From Ignavibacteria bacterium RIFCSPLOWO2_12_FULL_56_21 (GTDB lineage: Bacteria; Bacteroidota; Ignavibacteria; UBA10030): 48,033 nucleotides of DNA. Of this stretch, positions 1 to 6,872 are shown one piece after another. The stretch's first letter is position 1; each line of letters opens with the position of its first letter. The notes below the pieces were generated by a model. That model was not told where the DNA came from. It ran no database searches and saw nothing but the letters and a program-made list of their open reading frames with translations. The DNA is taken from NCBI GenBank assembly GCA_001802945.1, contig MHAK01000107.1, positions 1 through 48,033 of the forward strand, given 5' to 3'. A program made the position numbers and the translations under genes.

Positions 1-206
1 TTCGACATTCCCGGCTCGTCAGCGATGTCGTCCGCAATGCGGGCGAATGCATAGATGGCGGCGATGTGGGGACGAGCTGTGCGAGGAAGAAGGAGGGAAG
101 CTACCGGGAAATTTTCATAGTGCCCTACCGCAAGCCGCTGACACCAATCGTACGCGTCAGCAGTTGACCAGTCGGTCCGCTCAGGAGCAAGTATCGACCG
201 ATGCAC
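1..206 (-). CDS. hpnC: Squalene/phytoene synthase family protein (HpnC-like), N-terminal part
   Basis: Reading the minus strand from about 206 down to the window edge gives an open frame with the hallmark N-terminus of trans-isoprenyl diphosphate synthases. It contains HYENFPVASLLLPR, then HIAAIYAFARIADDIADE, the second being the first aspartate-rich substrate-binding motif. HYENFPV followed by the YAFAR-ADDIADE block is typical of HpnC, which makes squalene for hopanoids together with HpnD/HpnE. A GTG at 206-204 is the best start I can see, but the frame stays open upstream, so the start is uncertain. The rest of the gene lies outside the window. It is co-directional with the cyclase gene ending at 281 and may be in the same transcript. 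Squalene versus phytoene specificity cannot be told from this fragment. Confidence 0.8.
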   Translation of the reverse strand, partial: MHRSILAPERTDWSTADAYDWCQRLAVGHYENFPVASLLLPRTARPHIAAIYAFARIADDIADEPGMS

Positions 207-232
207 GCTTCTCTGAGCACAATGGTTGAACC

Positions 233-277
233 GTTTGGACTGTTTGGTACGTTTGGAATGTTTGGAACGTTTCCATA
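233..277. repeat. Period-9 tandem repeat, GTTTGGAAN units
   Basis: Five consecutive 9-base units start with GTTTGG (the last is GTTTCC), at 233, 242, 251, 260 and 269. They fill the gap between the cyclase stop codon (281) and the hpnC-like start. The period is exactly nine with variable last three bases, the same style as the other degenerate short-period repeats in this window. Confidence 0.85.
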
Positions 278-280
278 GCG

Positions 281-2257
281 CTAGTTTTCTTCCACCATCA
301 CCTCATACACCGGCAATGGCTCACTTATCCCTTTCGGTTGTATGGGCTCCAAAGGACGAGTTTTCACATGGTCTTTCACAAGCTCCCATGTCCGTTGTGT
401 GATCATGATCCCTTCCACCGGTGCATTTGATTCCAATCTCTGAGCGAGGTTGACATCGGCACCGAGGACCGTATACGACAATCGGCGCGCAGAACCCATA
501 TTTCCAACAACCACCGGACCAGTGTTGATGCCGACGCGGATTTTGAGCGGGAACAATCCTTTCTTCTCCCATTCCACCTTCAATTGCCTGCACTTCTTCT
601 GCATCTCGATCCCCGCTTTCACACAACGCAGCGCATGGTCCTCCTGCGGTTCCGGGTCGCCGAAGAATACCATTAATCCATCCCCGATGAACTTGTCCAC
701 CGTCCCCTCATACTTGAAGACAATGTCCACCATCGCTTCGAAATATTCGTTCAACATTTTCTGGATGGTGTCCGGCGACATCGTGGACGAGTACGACGTG
801 AACGACTTGATGTCAGTGAACATGATCGTCAGTTCTTTCTTCTGACCGCCGACAGTGATGAGTTCCGGATTGGTCATGATGCGGCGAACGACGGACGGGG
901 GAAAATAGGCCTCGAACGAGCGGCGCAGCGACTCCTTTGCACGTTGTTCGTTGATGTACCGGTAGGCGGAAATGCCGACGAACCCGAAAACCATCATCGA
1001 CATCGGTCGAATGATGCTGACAATCGTATGTCCCGCCAGAAAGAGTCCGGCCGCACTGAAGAAATATGCAACCATCAGCAGAACGGCTGCTGTCCACATC
1101 CAGCGAGATGACCCAACCGAACCAATGATGGCCATGAACAAGGCCAGGACAAGCTCCACAGCCAGCATGCGGCCGGTTCCCCATTCTTCCATGAACGATC
1201 TGGTGAGGATCGTGTGGACCACATTTGCGTGCAATCCGCTCAGCGGGAAATTGTTATCGGTCGGGACGGGGGCAATGTCGGAGGAACCGGTGGAAATCTG
1301 CGAGACGACGGCAATGGCCCCTTGCGTATGGAATTCGTCCGCGAGCATCGCCAGGTCTTCGCTGGAACCGGCGGAGAGATACACGTCGGCAAAGTCGATG
1401 TGCCTCATCCTGTTCCAGTCGCCGACAAAGTTCACCACCATTTCCCCGGCGTTGTTGATCGGAATGACGATATCGCGTGCATCGCGCCCCGGGCGACGGG
1501 TGCCCAGGAGTGTGACGCTTTCCCCCGGCCGAACAACAATGCGGTCGGGTGTTACGCCGAGGTAGTCGCACACTGCGCGAAAGGGCATACTTGGATAGTA
1601 TGCATCCCCCGTGCGCACGACGAGGGGGGCGCGCCGGAACACGCCGTCGCGGTCGAACCGGAGACTTAAGTACCCGAGCCCGCGAGAGGCGATGGAAAGT
1701 TCGGGGAGCGTGATGATGGGATTAATGCCGCGGAGCAGAGAAGAAGGGTCGCCTTCGACGCGAAGGTGCCATGAAGTGGAATCCAAGTAACGCCGTCGCT
1801 CGGCCGGAATCTCCCTCTGAGGAGCGGTCGGGTCGACAGTCTCGAGCACAAAGGCCGAGCCAAAGTAGACATTGGCTGCATCGGCGACGCCGCGGATGAA
1901 AGCTTCATCGTCAGCTCGGTCCGAGGATTTTTCGGGAAAAATATAGTCCCAAATTTGCGCCGATGTTCCCATGACACCAAGGGCGCGTGCAACCTCACCG
2001 AATTGGTAACGCGACGGATAGTAACTGCCGAGTTTACTGATGCTGCGGTCGTTTAAGTCGACGTGGATGACGGTGCTGTCGTAGGCCGGCTGAAAGAACG
2101 CGCTGGACGACCGGAACACAAACAGGCGGTCGACTGCCTGCGCGTTCCATGGTTCCAGAACGTTCGGGAAGAGGATTTCGAGAAGGTGGGACGTAAGCCA
2201 CGCCGCCCCGACGATCAGCGCGGTGGTGCGCACCGCGCGAGACTTAACGGTGGTCAA
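281..2257 (-). CDS. CHASE2-domain class III adenylate/guanylate cyclase
   Basis: Predicted membrane-bound nucleotide cyclase. Near the N-terminus is one hydrophobic helix (about residues 12-30). A large extracytoplasmic CHASE2 sensor follows (about 40-350), then three closely spaced membrane helices (about 363-434) and a C-terminal class III cyclase domain (about 475-655). Both metal-binding aspartates are present, in MFTDIKSF (about D482) and FIGDGL (about D526). The Lys of DKFIGD and the Thr of SYTVLG fit ATP rather than GTP as substrate, by analogy with bacterial adenylate cyclases. The frame is open to a GTG at 2350, but that would overlap the DUF4384 gene by over 100 bases. The TTG at 2257 overlaps it by 14 and keeps the first helix, so I use it; a GTG at 2233 is also possible. 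It is the third gene of the caspase-DUF4384-cyclase run. Confidence 0.93.
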   Translation of the reverse strand: MTTVKSRAVRTTALIVGAAWLTSHLLEILFPNVLEPWNAQAVDRLFVFRSSSAFFQPAYDSTVIHVDLNDRSISKLGSYYPSRYQFGEVARALGVMGTSAQIWDYIFPEKSSDRADDEAFIRGVADAANVYFGSAFVLETVDPTAPQREIPAERRRYLDSTSWHLRVEGDPSSLLRGINPIITLPELSIASRGLGYLSLRFDRDGVFRRAPLVVRTGDAYYPSMPFRAVCDYLGVTPDRIVVRPGESVTLLGTRRPGRDARDIVIPINNAGEMVVNFVGDWNRMRHIDFADVYLSAGSSEDLAMLADEFHTQGAIAVVSQISTGSSDIAPVPTDNNFPLSGLHANVVHTILTRSFMEEWGTGRMLAVELVLALFMAIIGSVGSSRWMWTAAVLLMVAYFFSAAGLFLAGHTIVSIIRPMSMMVFGFVGISAYRYINEQRAKESLRRSFEAYFPPSVVRRIMTNPELITVGGQKKELTIMFTDIKSFTSYSSTMSPDTIQKMLNEYFEAMVDIVFKYEGTVDKFIGDGLMVFFGDPEPQEDHALRCVKAGIEMQKKCRQLKVEWEKKGLFPLKIRVGINTGPVVVGNMGSARRLSYTVLGADVNLAQRLESNAPVEGIMITQRTWELVKDHVKTRPLEPIQPKGISEPLPVYEVMVEEN

Positions 2258-2906
2258 TCGTAACGGTCTTGGCGTAGAAATTGGATGCGGAGATCTGCGT
2301 TGCGATGTCGGCGACATCGGGCCGTTTCGCCGCCTCTGCCTCTCCCACACCCCGAATGTTGCCTCCGATCGTCACCGGTTTTTCTGCAAGGGTTTGCGCC
2401 GAACGGAATCGCCGCCGCGCGTCGCGGATCTCGTTCACAATGCTCTGTGCGATCTCGGGCCGTTTTGCCTTATCGGCGGCTTTATACGTGGTTAGCAATG
2501 TTTCGAGCTGTGTCAACCGCTCCGATGCTGCCAGGAGGTAGAACGTCTCCTTGCCGGTGGTTTTGTCGAATTTGATCCAATCCCTTCCGGGGGGGATGTA
2601 GTAATTCTTGTCGGCAGCGTAATCGGTCGTGAATTGTTTGAACGAATAGGGGAAGAACATTGTGATTTCGCCCGCCGGTCCTGCGTGAACGACATACACA
2701 AAGCAGGACTTGCCCAAGTCGACAAGCATTTTCACTTCGTCCCCTGAGTTCAGAATCGTATCGCGGGTGATCGGCACGAAGGCCTTTTTCGGTCCAGCGA
2801 GTGCGCCGAAGGCCCATTTGAAAGAAACATTCTCGGCGGAGCCCTGGGCGAAAGCCGGCGACAGCGCGAACATCATCACTAGCGCGAACATAGTGGGGCG
2901 TTTCAT
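2244..2906 (-). CDS. Secreted DUF4384 domain protein
   Basis: A 220-residue protein with a clear signal peptide (MKRPTMFALVMMFALSPAFA, cleavage near residue 21). The DUF4384 core spans about residues 50-130: GDEVKMLVDLGKSCFVYVV followed by GEITMFFPYSF, the usual pattern in this beta-rich domain of unknown biochemical role. The C-terminal third is basic and helical. The ATG at 2906 is chosen because AGGAG lies five bases upstream and the signal peptide begins there. As I know the family, DUF4384 domains are often found with caspase-like proteins, and here the gene lies directly downstream of one and overlaps the start of a cyclase gene. Its location is periplasm or cell surface. A role in sensing or adaptor function for the cluster is inference. 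Confidence 0.85.
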   Translation of the reverse strand: MKRPTMFALVMMFALSPAFAQGSAENVSFKWAFGALAGPKKAFVPITRDTILNSGDEVKMLVDLGKSCFVYVVHAGPAGEITMFFPYSFKQFTTDYAADKNYYIPPGRDWIKFDKTTGKETFYLLAASERLTQLETLLTTYKAADKAKRPEIAQSIVNEIRDARRRFRSAQTLAEKPVTIGGNIRGVGEAEAAKRPDVADIATQISASNFYAKTVTIDHR

Positions 2907-2980
2907 GAAGACTCCTGATACGATATGGAAAATGACTCGTTCAGATCGTGAAGCGAAACCGATGGAAAGCCCGGTTGGGA

Positions 2981-3059
2981 TCGCCAAGACGCAAAGGGCG
3001 CCAAGAACGCCAAGATGTTTGCTTTCCTGGCGACCTTGGTTCTCTTGGCCCCTTGGTGA
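2981..3059. repeat. Family GCCAAG hairpin repeat, copy 1
   Basis: The left arm has units GCCAAGACG, GCCAAGAAC and GCCAAGATG, with one degenerate CAAAGGGC unit. After a short A/T-rich loop the right arm carries the inverse, CCTTGGTTC, CTTGGCCC and CTTGGTGAT. It lies between the caspase-like gene and the DUF4384 gene. Related copies are at 10086-10172, 21426-21515 and 36687-36808. It folds as an imperfect long hairpin in RNA. Confidence 0.85.
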
Positions 3060-3107
3060 TGTTCTTTTACCCGAGACTTCAACTTCGGTCTTATTTTTTT
3101 CACGACC

Positions 3108-5498
3108 TCAATGCGGAATCAGTGCCACGGTCAGGTCTTTGTCATACGTCGTCTGACTCCGGGTGGGATTCTGCGCTCCCCGGGTCTTTCGCTTGACCTG
3201 CTCCTCCGTGTACTGCATCGCTTCGTTGATCGTGATCGTAAAGTCATTGTTGTAATCAGCCTTGCCCCGAAGGCCTTCCAGCAGGAATTGCGTGAATACT
3301 CCGTGGCCGAACTCCGGAAATTCCTGTGAAACCTCGCCGGCGGCGCTGGCAGTGAAGACGACCGTTCCGTCTTTTGTCCGCGACAGGTCCGCAAGATATT
3401 GATTCACGAGGTTCTGCTCCGTCACACCCACGCCCCGTGTTGCGAAATTCGCGCTGATACCGCCGGAATGGCATGCGTCGGAGAAGACGACGATCTTTTT
3501 CGCGGTGATGTAGCGCCCCAGAACGTCCTCGATCTGCCACATGGGAAATCCGGTCGTGCCCAACCGCGACGGATCGCTGTCGTAGGTCAGGAGATAGAGA
3601 TTCTGCGGCCGGGCGGGTTCGGGCGCACCATGGCCGGCGAAATAGATAATCACAAGGTCGATGTCGATGGCCTGGCTCAGGAAATTGATCAGTCCGTCAC
3701 GCACATTCTGGAGCGTTGCGTCTTTGTTGAGCAGGACGCGCATGTGGTCGTTGTCGTACCCGCCCCCTTCGGTCGTCCTGAGGAAATTTGCGAACGCTTC
3801 AGCGTCTTTGTCCGCATATTTCAGGCTCGGGATCCCTGGGTCGCCATACTGCGATACGCCGATGACCACCGCCCAGCGCTGTGGTCCCGTGGTGGCCGCC
3901 CGCTTCTTCTGCTGTTGAACCGGCGCTTGCGTGACGGTCGGCGTATACTTGCGCGACACACCAATCGTCTTCGCGATACGTTCTCCGTTCTTGCCGTTCA
4001 CCACGAGCTGGATCTGGTTGTAGCCGACGACCAGCGGGATCTCTTCCGTAATCACATCTCCGGCTATTTTGTTCTTCGGACGCTGACCCCTCACGATCTC
4101 CACAAGATTGATCGTCACTGAATAGGTCGACACGTCAAACCAGGGACGGAACGAGAGTGCTGTCGAAACGCCTTCCACTTCTGTCGTGATCTGAGGCCCG
4201 AGGACCTCAAGCGCATCGTTGGCCGACAACCGTTCGATTGCGAGGACCGCCGCACCGGACAAACCTTTGGCGTCGGTGGCCGTAAAGGCAAATCGATTGA
4301 CGCCCACGGTGTCGAGACGAAGTTTTATGGAGAATCCGCGGACGAGCGCTCCTTCGGGCAGTCCGATCGCATCGGACGGAGCGGCGTTGACGAGCTGTAC
4401 GGGTGTACCCCCGACGGTAACTTCTTTCAGAGATTTGTTGTCCCAAACGATGCCGCGCACGGTGATCTCCGTTGCAAACATCCGGCGCGGTACGTTCACG
4501 GCGAGCGGCGTCGGTTCTTTAATGACGACGGTTGGCGGATCGATATCAGGAGGTTCCTTTCGTACTGTCCATCGCAGGACGGATCCCGTGCTGGTTGCAG
4601 CGAGCAGCATGCCGTTCGTGGCAAAAGCGGCCTGCGTCCACGGCGTGCCCGTCATTGTTTGAACGATCTTCATCGCTGGAACGTCGAGCAGGGCCAGAGA
4701 ACTGTCCGTTCCCGTGGACGCGAGCCATGTCGCCGCCTGCTCAAAGGCGAGTGACGTCACTGACCCGCGGTATGCCTGGATCTTCGACTCAAGGGCTCCC
4801 GTCGCAGCATTCCAGATGATCAACTGGCCGTCGAACGTTCCCGCGACAAAATGTTTGCTGTCGGGAGAAAAGGCAGCGACGGTGATGCGAGACGCGTTGT
4901 CCTTCAGGAGGAGTCCGGGTGTGAGCCCGGGGAGGGAAGTGAATTGCACTGTGCCCGCGGACGTGGCGACTGCGAAGATCTTTCCGTCGGGCTGCAGTGC
5001 GATCGCCGTCGGCTCCAGAGGCGAAACAGAGACTGATCCGACCGAGTTGCCGGAATTCAGGTCGGTGATTCTGATTGATTTGTCCGCTCCAACCGTGAAC
5101 ACAAGATTCTCTTCCTGAACGGCCAGCGCTGCAATGCCGCCGCGATGCGGAGAAAAGGGAATTCCCGGCGCAAGGCCTGCAATTCTCCAACTGATGACGT
5201 TCCCATCCGCCGACCCCGTGATGAGGGTCTGACCGGAACGGGTGAACGCAAGCGCTGTGATACGAACTTGCTGGGGTGGAAGTTGAACCGGAGCTTCAAG
5301 TGTCGCGGCGTTGACCAAGCGGACCGATCGGTCGGCGGCGGCGATGGCCAGCAGATTTGCCGCCGCATTGAATTCGAGGCGGACAATGGCCGACGGTACG
5401 ATGGAAACCGTTTGGTGCTGCTCAAGGTAGACCTCCTGGGCTTGAAGCGCCGAAGAGGTCAGGAGCAGAATTCCGGCACAGCGAACAAGAATTTTCAT
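3108..5498 (-). CDS. Secreted WD40-repeat protein with C-terminal caspase-like (C14) peptidase domain
   Basis: A 796-residue protein starting with a signal peptide (MKILVRCAGILLLTSSALQAQ). About residues 30-315 are WD40-type propeller repeats, for example VRLVNAATLEAPV, ITGSADGNVISWR and VAGTFDGQLIIWN. A linker with beta-sandwich character follows (about 330-530). The caspase/metacaspase domain spans about residue 541 to the end: RWAVVIGVSQYG, the catalytic His in IIYFAGHGAPEP (about H623) and the catalytic Cys in VVFSDACHSGG (about C676). Both catalytic residues are intact. The frame extends 31 codons further upstream without a signal sequence, so the ATG at 5498 is preferred. It is the first gene of a run with a DUF4384 protein and a CHASE2 cyclase. 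Substrate unknown. The signal peptide places the peptidase outside the cytoplasm. Confidence 0.93.
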   Translation of the reverse strand: MKILVRCAGILLLTSSALQAQEVYLEQHQTVSIVPSAIVRLEFNAAANLLAIAAADRSVRLVNAATLEAPVQLPPQQVRITALAFTRSGQTLITGSADGNVISWRIAGLAPGIPFSPHRGGIAALAVQEENLVFTVGADKSIRITDLNSGNSVGSVSVSPLEPTAIALQPDGKIFAVATSAGTVQFTSLPGLTPGLLLKDNASRITVAAFSPDSKHFVAGTFDGQLIIWNAATGALESKIQAYRGSVTSLAFEQAATWLASTGTDSSLALLDVPAMKIVQTMTGTPWTQAAFATNGMLLAATSTGSVLRWTVRKEPPDIDPPTVVIKEPTPLAVNVPRRMFATEITVRGIVWDNKSLKEVTVGGTPVQLVNAAPSDAIGLPEGALVRGFSIKLRLDTVGVNRFAFTATDAKGLSGAAVLAIERLSANDALEVLGPQITTEVEGVSTALSFRPWFDVSTYSVTINLVEIVRGQRPKNKIAGDVITEEIPLVVGYNQIQLVVNGKNGERIAKTIGVSRKYTPTVTQAPVQQQKKRAATTGPQRWAVVIGVSQYGDPGIPSLKYADKDAEAFANFLRTTEGGGYDNDHMRVLLNKDATLQNVRDGLINFLSQAIDIDLVIIYFAGHGAPEPARPQNLYLLTYDSDPSRLGTTGFPMWQIEDVLGRYITAKKIVVFSDACHSGGISANFATRGVGVTEQNLVNQYLADLSRTKDGTVVFTASAAGEVSQEFPEFGHGVFTQFLLEGLRGKADYNNDFTITINEAMQYTEEQVKRKTRGAQNPTRSQTTYDKDLTVALIPH

Positions 5499-5650
5499 GG
5501 CGTTTGTTATCGACGACTTCCCTGTAAAAGGAGAAGCCGGTAGGTGTAGGGTACGTGCGTCAAGACGACGAAGGCGTGCGACTCGTGTCACACGCCCTAT
5601 ATACTCTCGCCCAAATGTTCGGAGTTTTTCGACCGATAGTCAAGAAACCC

Positions 5651-5682
5651 CTTGCACGCGTGGCACAGAAACGCTACATTTT
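5651..5682 (+). promoter_or_regulatory. FCB-type promoter for the ACT-domain gene
   Basis: CTTG at 5651-5654 and TACATTTT at 5675-5682 are separated by exactly 20 bases, close to the Bacteroidota consensus TTTG-N19-21-TAnnTTTG. The start codon is about 40 bases downstream. The string ACGCTACATTT is also present in the promoter at 33184-33215. Confidence 0.6.
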
Positions 5683-5721
5683 TCCATCAAATTCGGCCTT
5701 GTTCCATTCTGGTAAGACCTC

Positions 5722-6123
5722 GTGCCCGACGGCCTCAAGAAACTCAAGCTTCACCTGCTCGAAGAAAAATTCACTGTCAGCAAGCTCCCCGTGTTTTCGG
5801 AGCTTCCGCACATCATTGCGAGCGGCGAGCTTTGCTTTTCCATGAGGACGGACGAAGAATTGACGGTCATAACGCCAGACTTCATGGCGCCGAACAATGT
5901 TCAGCAGGAACCGGGCTGGCGTTGTATCCGCATCGACGGCCAGATCCCTTTTCAAGCAGTCGGCGTGCTCCTGTCGCTGATCAAACCGCTGGCAGATACC
6001 GGCATCCCTATCTTTGCCGTTTCAACGTTCAACACGGACTACGTCTTTCTGCCCGACCAGACCATCATCCACGCAGTACAAGCACTTCAACATGCGGGAC
6101 ATGAGTTTGTGCATAAGGAATGA
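5722..6123 (+). CDS. ACT domain-containing protein
   Basis: A 133-residue cytoplasmic protein beginning with GTG (MPDGLKKLKLHLLEEKFTV). It looks like a tandem of two small alpha/beta ACT-like folds. The first half ends around ELTVITPDFMAPNN. The second half has the typical ACT core GWRCIRIDGQIPFQAVGVLL, then LADTGIPIFAVSTFNTDYVF and an end rich in helix (HAVQALQHAGHEF). This second half matches the small ACT-fold proteins of the CASTOR/DUF2241 kind, which are presumed amino-acid sensors. It stands alone between the divergent caspase run and the convergent histidine operon. The ligand is unknown. Regulation by the promoter at 5651-5682 is inferred from position. Confidence 0.8.
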   Translation: MPDGLKKLKLHLLEEKFTVSKLPVFSELPHIIASGELCFSMRTDEELTVITPDFMAPNNVQQEPGWRCIRIDGQIPFQAVGVLLSLIKPLADTGIPIFAVSTFNTDYVFLPDQTIIHAVQALQHAGHEFVHKE

Positions 6124-6154
6124 TCCGGGAGAGTTCGGAGAGAATTAGTACAGC

Positions 6155-6200
6155 CAGTGCTCAGTGCCCAGCACTGAGTTCTGAGCACTTAAGAGTTTTT
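6155..6200. terminator. Hairpin between ACT gene and hisIE (possible terminator)
   Basis: AGTGCTCA (6156-6163) pairs with TGAGCACT (6182-6189), and an inner GTGC/GCAC can pair too. On the plus strand a T5 run follows at 6196-6200. The two operons converge here. The CTCAGTGC/GCACTGAG content also looks like a short-period repeat, so the terminator role is not certain. Confidence 0.5.
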
Positions 6201-6248
6201 CCCCGAACTGAACACTCCATAATACCATTATATCCCATCCCCCTTCTC

Positions 6249-6872
6249 TCATCCACGATCTTTCATCCTCCCCTCAAGCTCTCTCTCGACATCCTTCCAT
6301 CCAAGTCCGCGTTCAGCAAGTAGCACCGTAAGATGATAGACCAGATCCGCGGTCTCCCGCCGCAATGAATCATTGTCCCCCTGAAGCGCCGCGATCACTG
6401 TCTCGACTCCCTCTTCTCCCACTTTTTGCGCGATCCTCGGCGTTCCTTCGTCAAATAACTTTGTCGTGTACGAACCTTGCGGCCGCTCGATCCGACGCTT
6501 TCGAACGATGTCTTCCAGCAGGTGCATCACCGGCAATGATGGTGACGTCTCCACGCCGAAACAACTGCGCGATCCGGTATGGCAGGTTGGACCCGCTGGA
6601 ATTGCCCGGATGAGCAGACTATCGTTGTCACAGTCCGCTGTAACGTGAACGACTTGTAGTTCATGACCCGAGGTTTCCCCTTTTTGCCATAGCCGCTTCT
6701 TCGTCCGGCTCCAAAACGTCGCCTTTCGGTCGTGTAAAGTTTTCTCAACCGCTTCCCGGTTCATGAAACCAACCATCAGGACTTCTCCCGTCGTGTCGTC
6801 CTGAACGACGGCGGGAAGAATGCCGTCAAGCTTAGAGAAATCGAGCGCTCCAACGTTGAAAGGGTCGTTCAC
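6249..6872 (-). CDS. hisIE: Bifunctional phosphoribosyl-AMP cyclohydrolase / phosphoribosyl-ATP pyrophosphatase
   Basis: A 207-residue fusion catalysing steps 2 and 3 of histidine synthesis. The N-terminal HisI domain (about 1-110) has VLMVGFMNREA, LWQKGETSGH, the metal site DCDNDSLL and CHTGSRSCF. The C-terminal HisE domain (about 120-207) has LLEDIVRKRR, the catalytic patch KVGEEGVETVIAAL and DLVYHLTVLLAERG. The frame is open far upstream into hisF. I start at the GTG at 6872, which overlaps the hisF stop as GTGA and gives the normal length. It is the last gene of the his operon; a hairpin lies at 6155-6189. No missing residues noted. Confidence 0.96.
   Translation of the reverse strand: MNDPFNVGALDFSKLDGILPAVVQDDTTGEVLMVGFMNREAVEKTLHDRKATFWSRTKKRLWQKGETSGHELQVVHVTADCDNDSLLIRAIPAGPTCHTGSRSCFGVETSPSLPVMHLLEDIVRKRRIERPQGSYTTKLFDEGTPRIAQKVGEEGVETVIAALQGDNDSLRRETADLVYHLTVLLAERGLGWKDVERELEGRMKDRG

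What the first reader, a model, noticed from the sequence alone, without database searches (positions are those of the whole stretch)
281..5498. Exported caspase-WD40, exported DUF4384 and CHASE2 cyclase in one run
Three co-directional genes encode a signal-peptide-bearing caspase with intact His/Cys and a WD40 propeller, a secreted DUF4384 protein, and a cyclase whose CHASE2 sensor faces the same compartment. DUF4384 and caspases are known to co-occur; adding a cyclase with an outward sensor suggests a periplasmic proteolysis-to-cAMP signalling module. The joint function is inference. The parts themselves are seen in the sequence.
Basis: partly seen in the sequence, partly recalled or inferred. 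Interest (0 to 1): 0.72.

Follow-up and report, generated by a model that had tools for sequence, protein, structure and literature searches.

The report
Exported caspase, envelope partner, receptor cyclase
Three neighbouring genes, for an exported caspase-type protease, an exported partner protein and a membrane enzyme that makes a cyclic-nucleotide signal, stay together in the same order across distant bacteria, which suggests that they relay events outside the inner membrane into the cell; this has not been tested at the bench here.

Summary
Window 281-5498 (minus) encodes an exported WD40-Ig-caspase with intact His/Cys, an exported DUF4384 protein and a CHASE2 class III cyclase. In 61 related genomes close orthologues of DUF4384 protein and cyclase occur in the same 27, adjacent each time; the caspase is directly upstream in 26; 34 genomes have none of the three. 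The DUF4384 stop overlaps the cyclase start by exactly 14 nt in 24 of 27. All 33 loci from a named collection (24 of them the same contigs by length) have the pair. In the phylum of a Desulfobacteraceae member, 8 of 9 tailed DUF4384 genes precede a cyclase and 6 of 9 follow a caspase, five of them of another architecture, caspase-FGE. Against: four pairs lack the caspase; G005 has a lone second caspase. Linkage is firm; direction (proteolysis to cAMP) is inference. Best model: DUF4384 acts on CHASE2; caspase cleavage in flexible basic loops changes cyclase output. No description found in the papers searched. New variant of a known kind; interest 0.72.

The parts
3108..5498 (-). Exported WD40-Ig-Ig-caspase (796 aa), gene 1
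   Evidence: model m3ac116aa19ea mean pLDDT 80.4, pTM 0.51; WD40 part matches 5yzv, TMt 0.91
4560..5429 (-). WD40 beta-propeller, residues about 24-313
3129..3881 (-). Caspase (Peptidase_C14) domain, residues about 540-790; His623 at 3630-3632, Cys676 at 3471-3473
   Evidence: both residues invariant 26 of 26
3885..3947 (-). Low-confidence basic linker (residues 518-538) before the caspase domain; candidate processing site
   Evidence: pLDDT under 50; Lys/Arg in a variable stretch; cleavage is inference
3372..3455 (-). Low-confidence loop (residues 682-709) after the catalytic Cys, with Arg688 and Lys709 invariant in 26 of 26; candidate cleavage loop
   Evidence: cleavage is inference
2966..3065 (-). 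Hairpin-forming, repeat-like spacer between caspase and DUF4384 genes; not part of the conserved module
   Evidence: z -3.84 for 2905-3110; five partial matches elsewhere in the genome
2244..2906 (-). Exported DUF4384 protein (220 aa), gene 2
   Evidence: model pLDDT 84.5; only DUF4384 hit of this genome
2520..2750 (-). Pfam DUF4384 domain
2247..2387 (-). Conserved C-terminal tail (residues 174-220) of the cyclase-linked DUF4384 proteins; Arg185 at 2352-2354 in a low-pLDDT loop
   Evidence: Arg185 invariant 27 of 27; an Arg at the matching place, read by eye, in 13 of 13 distant tails
2244..2257 (-). 14-nt overlap of DUF4384 stop and cyclase TTG start
   Evidence: exactly 14 nt in 24 of 27 orthologous loci; a start codon at that place in 8 of 12 distant loci
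281..2257 (-). CHASE2 transmembrane class III nucleotide cyclase (658 aa), gene 3
1133..2176 (-). CHASE2 domain (periplasmic by inferred topology)
329..844 (-). Cyclase catalytic domain; Asp482, Lys522, Asp526, Thr596, Asn603, Arg607 invariant in 23 of 23

Best explanation
An envelope-spanning signalling unit. The exported DUF4384 protein, whose translation is coupled to the cyclase, is the periplasmic partner of the CHASE2 domain and sets the activity of the inner-membrane cyclase. The exported caspase, expected to cleave after Arg/Lys, is activated in the periplasm (by processing in the linker 518-538 and/or the loop around Arg688) and cleaves the DUF4384 partner, most simply in its flexible loop at Arg185. 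That relieves or triggers CHASE2 and changes cytoplasmic cyclic nucleotide, read by cNMP-binding regulators. The WD40, TPR, Ig or FGE-like part of the caspase is the variable recognition arm. Shown: gene order, fixed overlap of genes 2 and 3, catalytic residues, hydrophobic N-termini, presence of other caspase architectures at the same place. Inferred: localisation, physical contact, cleavage, direction and nucleotide. About 0.85 that the three work in one pathway; about 0.5 that caspase activity regulates the cyclase; about 0.2 that Arg185 is the site.
For: The same 27 of 61 genomes carry close orthologues of genes 2 and 3, adjacent in 27 of 27; gene 1 directly upstream in 26; 34 genomes have none of the three (they have other CHASE2 cyclases, and some have other caspases); presence varies within genera g9 and g10, all genes together. 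33 of 33 collection loci have genes 2-3, 28 with the WD40-caspase and 2 with another caspase directly upstream; 24 of the 33 are the same contigs by length as in the 61, 9 are new (5 with WD40-caspase, 2 other caspase, 1 none, 1 cut). Phylum of G439: cyclase 8 of 9, caspase 6 of 9 tailed loci; 12 tail-less DUF4384 control loci: cyclase near in 1, caspase near in 4. 14-nt overlap in 24 of 27. DUF4384-caspase fusions L106:6692-8350 and L142:2660-5332. Another caspase/CHASE2-cyclase neighbourhood (L096, L098) whose cyclases lie in a different supported clade. A caspase-CHASE2 fusion in Trichodesmium is in print (PMC3501461, passages). A CyaD1 lacking CHASE2 makes cAMP constitutively (PMC5498481, figure legend), so CHASE2 can act as a brake. 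Six cNMP-binding hits in this genome. Non-animal C14 proteases characterised so far prefer Arg/Lys at P1, and cleavage was needed for activity of one orthocaspase (PMC5756287, passages).
Against: No biochemical data. Caspase absent beside genes 2-3 in G017/L131, L146, L199 and L203, so the pair can stand without it. G005 has a second caspase-WD40 without DUF4384 or cyclase beside it (L082). Ig-caspases related to those of L096 lie in L106, L107 and L108 with no cyclase found near them. One tailed DUF4384 (L205) has no cyclase. Caspases also sit by 4 of 12 tail-less DUF4384 controls, so the caspase link is not peculiar to the tail; in L215 the order of cyclase and DUF4384 is reversed. Three cyclases lack the Lys/Thr pair. 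Arg185 could be structural. The 201-bp gap with a hairpin may uncouple gene 1 in this genome. Several distant loci are MAG contigs that may be misbinned.
Confidence: 0.5

Rival explanations
1. DUF4384 plus CHASE2-cyclase is the real two-component sensor; the caspase is a downstream or parallel envelope protease that shares its operon (for example removing damaged envelope proteins) and does not act on the cyclase.
For: Genes 2-3 are tightly coupled (14-nt overlap in 24 of 27), genes 1-2 are not (gap up to 317 nt); caspase missing in G017/L131, L146, L199, L203; a lone second caspase-WD40 in G005.
Against: 26 of 27 keep the caspase; other caspase architectures recur at the same place; another caspase/CHASE2-cyclase neighbourhood in a different cyclase clade; DUF4384-caspase fusions.
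Confidence: 0.3
2. The signal runs the other way: the cyclase senses envelope state and, through a cNMP-binding regulator, controls expression of the caspase, which is the output.
For: Autogenous control of sensor operons is common (recalled); six cNMP-binding hits exist in the genome.
Against: No regulator gene in the conserved core. No promoter evidence: the one consensus match found in 1-6300 is on the other strand and below the shuffled mean; I did not scan for CRP sites.
Confidence: 0.15
3. A defence or cell-suicide module akin to Pycsar or caspase conflict systems.
For: PADLOC PycC profiles hit the cyclase domain (best 1.2e-26) and a caspase profile hits gene 1 (5.4e-17); NCBIfam caspase_w_EACC1 113.3 bits.
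Against: The EACC1-type score is below its cut-off of 140; the cyclase has a CHASE2 receptor part and hydrophobic helices; neighbours are his, hpn and tig/clpPX genes; caspase and DUF4384 look exported. The PycC hits cover the shared cyclase domain only.
Confidence: 0.05

Closest known systems
CHASE2 adenylate cyclase clusters with FecR, TPR and phosphodiesterase genes in Campylobacterota (PMC9239204, passage read)
   Same: CHASE2 receptor cyclase kept beside an envelope protein; taken there as one signalling pathway
   Different: Partner is a FecR-domain protein, with no caspase or DUF4384 named in the passage; here the partner is a DUF4384 protein and a protease is added
LapD-LapG (PMC3032553, outline with short abstract; PMC3032545, start of abstract)
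   Same: Periplasmic cysteine protease coupled to a cyclic-nucleotide transmembrane protein
   Different: LapD is a c-di-GMP receptor that signals inside-out; here a cyclase would make the signal and the protease is a caspase (C14)
Orthocaspases with WD40, DUF4384 or CHASE2 accessory domains (PMC3501461, passages and section 13; PMC7475262, passages)
   Same: C14 domain with His/Cys, WD40 and DUF4384 links; one caspase-CHASE2 fusion
   Different: The Trichodesmium fusion is read there as a cytoplasmic caspase; the caspase here looks exported. The word 'cyclase' does not occur in the main text of PMC3501461; its supplementary operon table was not read
Pycsar cyclase (PycC)
   Same: Class III cyclase domain
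   Different: No CHASE2 receptor or caspase partner that I recall; here CHASE2 and hydrophobic helices, and no effector gene among the neighbours seen

Membership tests
Peptidase C14 / orthocaspase | p20 fold with His-Cys dyad | tested here: met
   Pfam 2.6e-21; His623 and Cys676 invariant 26 of 26
Peptidase C14 / orthocaspase | Basic P1 preference through an acidic pocket | not testable with these tools
   Asp674, two before Cys676, is invariant 26 of 26; its pocket role is recalled; activity needs an assay
Peptidase C14 / orthocaspase | No p10 domain | tested here: inconclusive
   Pfam C14 match covers model 2-232 of 233; p10 was not scored apart
NCBIfam caspase, EACC1-associated type (NF047832) | Score at or above cut-off 140 | tested here: not met
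   113.3 bits
CHASE2 class III cyclase | CHASE2 between membrane segments plus catalytic cyclase residues | tested here: met
   the first membrane segment of the window's own protein is under my hydropathy threshold, those of 22 of 23 are over it
FecR-CHASE2 cyclase cluster | FecR-domain partner gene next to the cyclase | tested here: not met
   Upstream neighbours by Pfam are the DUF4384 protein and the caspase; the gene downstream is cut by the contig end and reads as HpnC-like, and in relatives squalene/phytoene synthases or other genes follow
Pycsar defence system | Cyclase with a dedicated effector gene | tested here: not met
   No effector-like gene among the five proteins scanned; downstream side seen only in relatives
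DUF4384 (PF14326) | Score over 27 bits | tested here: met
   47.9 bits

The most novel reading that the evidence does not exclude
A widespread, undescribed kind of bacterial transmembrane signalling: a protease-gated receptor cyclase, in which exchangeable exported caspases report events outside the inner membrane by cleaving a dedicated DUF4384 messenger that switches a CHASE2 cyclase, a bacterial counterpart in logic to protease-activated receptors.
Probability: 0.35. Interest if true: 0.87.

Novelty: new variant of a known kind. Interest (0 to 1): 0.72.

Why it matters
What prokaryotic caspases do is largely open (my reading of the papers cited), and the environmental factors that CHASE2 domains recognise were called unknown (PMC5192318, passage). 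A conserved operon that ties an exported caspase to a CHASE2 cyclase through one small exported protein gives a candidate substrate, a candidate CHASE2 partner and a readout (cyclic nucleotide) in one testable system of three genes. It would move bacterial caspases from presumed cell death towards envelope signalling.

Tried and rejected
Defence reading: PADLOC PycC and caspase hits cover shared domains; neighbours are housekeeping genes. Hopanoid link: squalene/phytoene-synthase genes follow the cyclase in many family f1 loci and HpnC-like sequence follows here, but the five f5 loci show none in the stretch fetched, so they are not core. An exported TPR protein (cluster c4) lies upstream in many loci but not here. 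Fold of DUF4384: Foldseek and VIA-align gave only weak, mostly Ig-like matches (best Z 6.9), among them an Ig-like domain of EcPycC at Z 6.2; I draw nothing from it. Viral contigs: no relative. Own phylum: 10 of 395 genomes match the DUF4384 profile, own genome included, so the module is lineage-limited there. PDB sequence search with the DUF4384 profile: nothing better than E 0.24. The inverted-repeat finder found no pair in the spacer though folding did. Group test of the cyclase tree: the label counts that treekit printed (4 changes, shuffled mean 3.9, 500 of 500 shuffles as low) say nothing, because I left the 20 unlinked rows in no group; I rely on the drawn clades only, in which the rows L159, L157 and L146 are long and unsure.

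Rows and sequences left out: the 15 weak rows (below the 9 full-length ones) served only as controls, in 12 fetched loci; L208 among them is only 4.5 kb. Cyclase alignment A2 holds 23 of 27 orthologues (the four cut by contig ends were left out). Caspase alignment A3 holds 25 of the 26 cassette caspases (G025, cut, left out) plus the second copy of G005.

Full report
What is there. The window is the whole contig C107 of an unnamed 3.36 Mb genome. On the minus strand, in order of transcription, lie a caspase gene (5498-3108), a DUF4384 gene (2906-2244) and a cyclase gene (2257-281). The first protein has a hydrophobic signal-like N-terminus, a WD40 propeller, Ig-like domains (read from the model's strands) and a caspase domain. 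The second is a small protein with a signal-like N-terminus, the DUF4384 domain and a conserved C-terminal tail. The third has CHASE2, a hydrophobic cluster and a class III cyclase domain; the hydrophobic stretch before CHASE2 is just under my threshold in the window's own protein and over it in the other 22 of 23.

Is it conserved? I searched the same 61 genomes with each protein. Close orthologues (E below 1e-150 for cyclase and caspase) of the cyclase occur in the same 27 genomes as the DUF4384 protein; those of the caspase-WD40 in 26 of these. One search shows the genes next to each other, same strand and order, in 26 of 27 (some cut by contig ends); G017 lacks the caspase and has a trigger-factor gene in that direction. 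The other 34 genomes have none of the three close orthologues, though they have other CHASE2 proteins and some have other caspases. Within genera g9 and g10 some species have all and some none, so the module seems to come and go as a unit. The DUF4384 stop and the cyclase TTG (23) or GTG (1) start overlap by exactly 14 nt in 24 of 27 loci; the other three use an ATG further downstream. A start codon at that place exists in 8 of 12 distant loci, at 11 and 17 nt in two more, and in neither L142 nor L201. The start codon itself is inferred from this conservation.

Beyond the family. A scan of the species-genome collection with patterns from the DUF4384 alignment gave 33 loci. All 33 have the cyclase directly downstream (some cut); 28 have the WD40-caspase upstream. 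L138 (Desulfobacteraceae MAG) has an exported-looking TPR-Ig-caspase, 32% identical to the window's in the caspase domain. L142 (acidobacterial MAG) has two exported-looking caspases, one fused to DUF4384 and one to an FGE-sulfatase domain. L131 (= G017) and L146 have no caspase; L145 starts 367 nt before the match. The patterns come from the tail of the cassette's own DUF4384 protein, so the search favours such proteins; that each one found sits next to a cyclase is the informative part. In 395 genomes of the phylum of G439 (the genome of L138) 20 matched, and nine full-length, tailed loci were found in 8 of them: cyclase downstream in 8, caspase directly upstream in 6. Five of these caspases are caspase-FGE proteins, 21% identical to the window's in the caspase domain where compared (L200). 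Twelve loci with DUF4384 lacking the tail served as controls: a cyclase in 1 (in reversed order) and a caspase in 4. So the cyclase link goes with the tail; the caspase link is wider. Caspases are not rare in some of these genomes (10 hits in G439, 3 in G440 of which 2 are in the cluster, 15 in G441, 1 in G442). In its own phylum the profile matched 10 of 395 genomes; one, G267, holds a divergent version: WD40-caspase (frame interrupted), DUF4384-like gene, CHASE2-cyclase with a start codon at 17 nt overlap.

A second link. In genus g10, L096 and L098 hold a surface-type protein or large ORF, a small membrane protein, an Ig-caspase with signal-like N-terminus, a CHASE2-cyclase, an M48 peptidase with SH3 and a caspase-PEGA protein. 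Their cyclases fall in a different, well supported part of the tree, among cyclases without caspase neighbours; most simply, caspase and CHASE2-cyclase came together twice, though one origin with many losses is not excluded. Their caspase domain is 41% identical to the window's. Against a strict link, related Ig-caspases in L106, L107 and L108 have no cyclase in the stretch seen, and in G022 the parts are about 15 kb apart. In 61 genomes 29 of 62 caspase hits lie within 3 kb of CHASE2 against 0.585 pairs within 5 kb expected; 25 of the 27 CHASE2 hits involved are the orthologous cassette.

How it may work. Caspase, DUF4384 protein and CHASE2 would meet in the periplasm. The C14 proteases outside animals that have been characterised cut after Arg or Lys, and one orthocaspase needs cleavage to be active (PMC5756287, passages). 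The caspase model has two low-confidence stretches: the basic linker 518-538 before the caspase domain and the loop 682-709 after the catalytic Cys, which holds Arg688 and Lys709, invariant in 26 of 26. The DUF4384 model has a low-confidence loop at 179-187 with Arg185 invariant in 27 of 27 and an Arg at the matching place in 13 of 13 distant tails read by eye. Removing CHASE2 makes another cyclase constitutive (PMC5498481, figure legend). The simplest chain is: caspase activation, cleavage of DUF4384, release of the CHASE2 brake, cyclic nucleotide, cNMP-binding regulators (six hits). Every arrow is inference. The terminal TIDH residues of the tail may owe part of their conservation to the overlapping cyclase start: the orphan L205, which has no cyclase, lacks them.

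What is known. CHASE2 cyclases cluster with FecR, TPR and phosphodiesterase genes in Campylobacterota (PMC9239204, passage); a CHASE2 histidine kinase has a FecR/LysM partner (PMC5192318, passages); cyanobacterial orthocaspases carry DUF4384 or WD40 (PMC7475262, passages); Trichodesmium has a caspase-CHASE2 fusion (PMC3501461, passages). The operon section of PMC3501461 (section 13 read) names no cyclase; its supplementary table was not read. Searches for caspase, orthocaspase or metacaspase with CHASE2, DUF4384, periplasm or cyclase terms, and for CHASE2 with FecR or adenylate cyclase gave no paper, among the listings and passages that I saw, that describes this operon; the library lacks most subscription journals and not every listed paper was opened.

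Limits. Localisation rests on hydropathy. The genomes are mostly MAGs and related to each other. In the window's genome a 201-bp spacer with a hairpin lies between genes 1 and 2. The class IIIb reading of Lys522/Thr596 is recalled, and three distant cyclases differ there.

Noticed in passing
L096:1-9289 and L098:1-14739: A different caspase/CHASE2-cyclase neighbourhood with a small membrane protein, SH3/M48 peptidase and caspase-PEGA protein; in G022 its pieces lie about 15 kb apart with a large Ig/FG-GAP protein between (L099).
   Followed up: partly
L198, L200, L201, L202, L204: Caspase-FGE-sulfatase proteins with signal-like N-termini directly upstream of DUF4384 and CHASE2-cyclase in five genomes of the phylum of G439; role of the FGE-like domain unknown.
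   Followed up: partly
L138, L145, L199 cyclases: Residues at the substrate-specifying places are Glu/Gly or Glu/Ser in place of Lys/Thr, so the product may not be cAMP.
   Followed up: no
L146:5392-8645: DUF4384-cyclase pair without caspase, with a subtilase (Peptidase_S8 4e-39) in divergent orientation beside it.
   Followed up: no
L205:8028-8852: Orphan tailed DUF4384 gene without cyclase or caspase found near it; it lacks the TIDH end that overlaps the cyclase start elsewhere.
   Followed up: no
L082:5686-8181: A second caspase-WD40 gene in G005, 48% identical to the window's, without DUF4384 or cyclase beside it.
   Followed up: no
window 1-170 (-): Start of a squalene/phytoene-synthase-like (HpnC) gene, read by eye, cut by the contig end; such synthases follow the module in many family f1 loci.
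   Followed up: partly
window 2966-3065: Hairpin-forming spacer between caspase and DUF4384 genes; five partial matches elsewhere in the genome.
   Followed up: partly
L159:5450-7474: WD40-caspase frame interrupted in G267; sequencing error or pseudogene not distinguished.
   Followed up: no
L158: CHASE2-cyclase with SH3/M48-like, LPP20-like and WD40/CsgG-like neighbours and an Ig-caspase about 8 kb away in G003.
   Followed up: no
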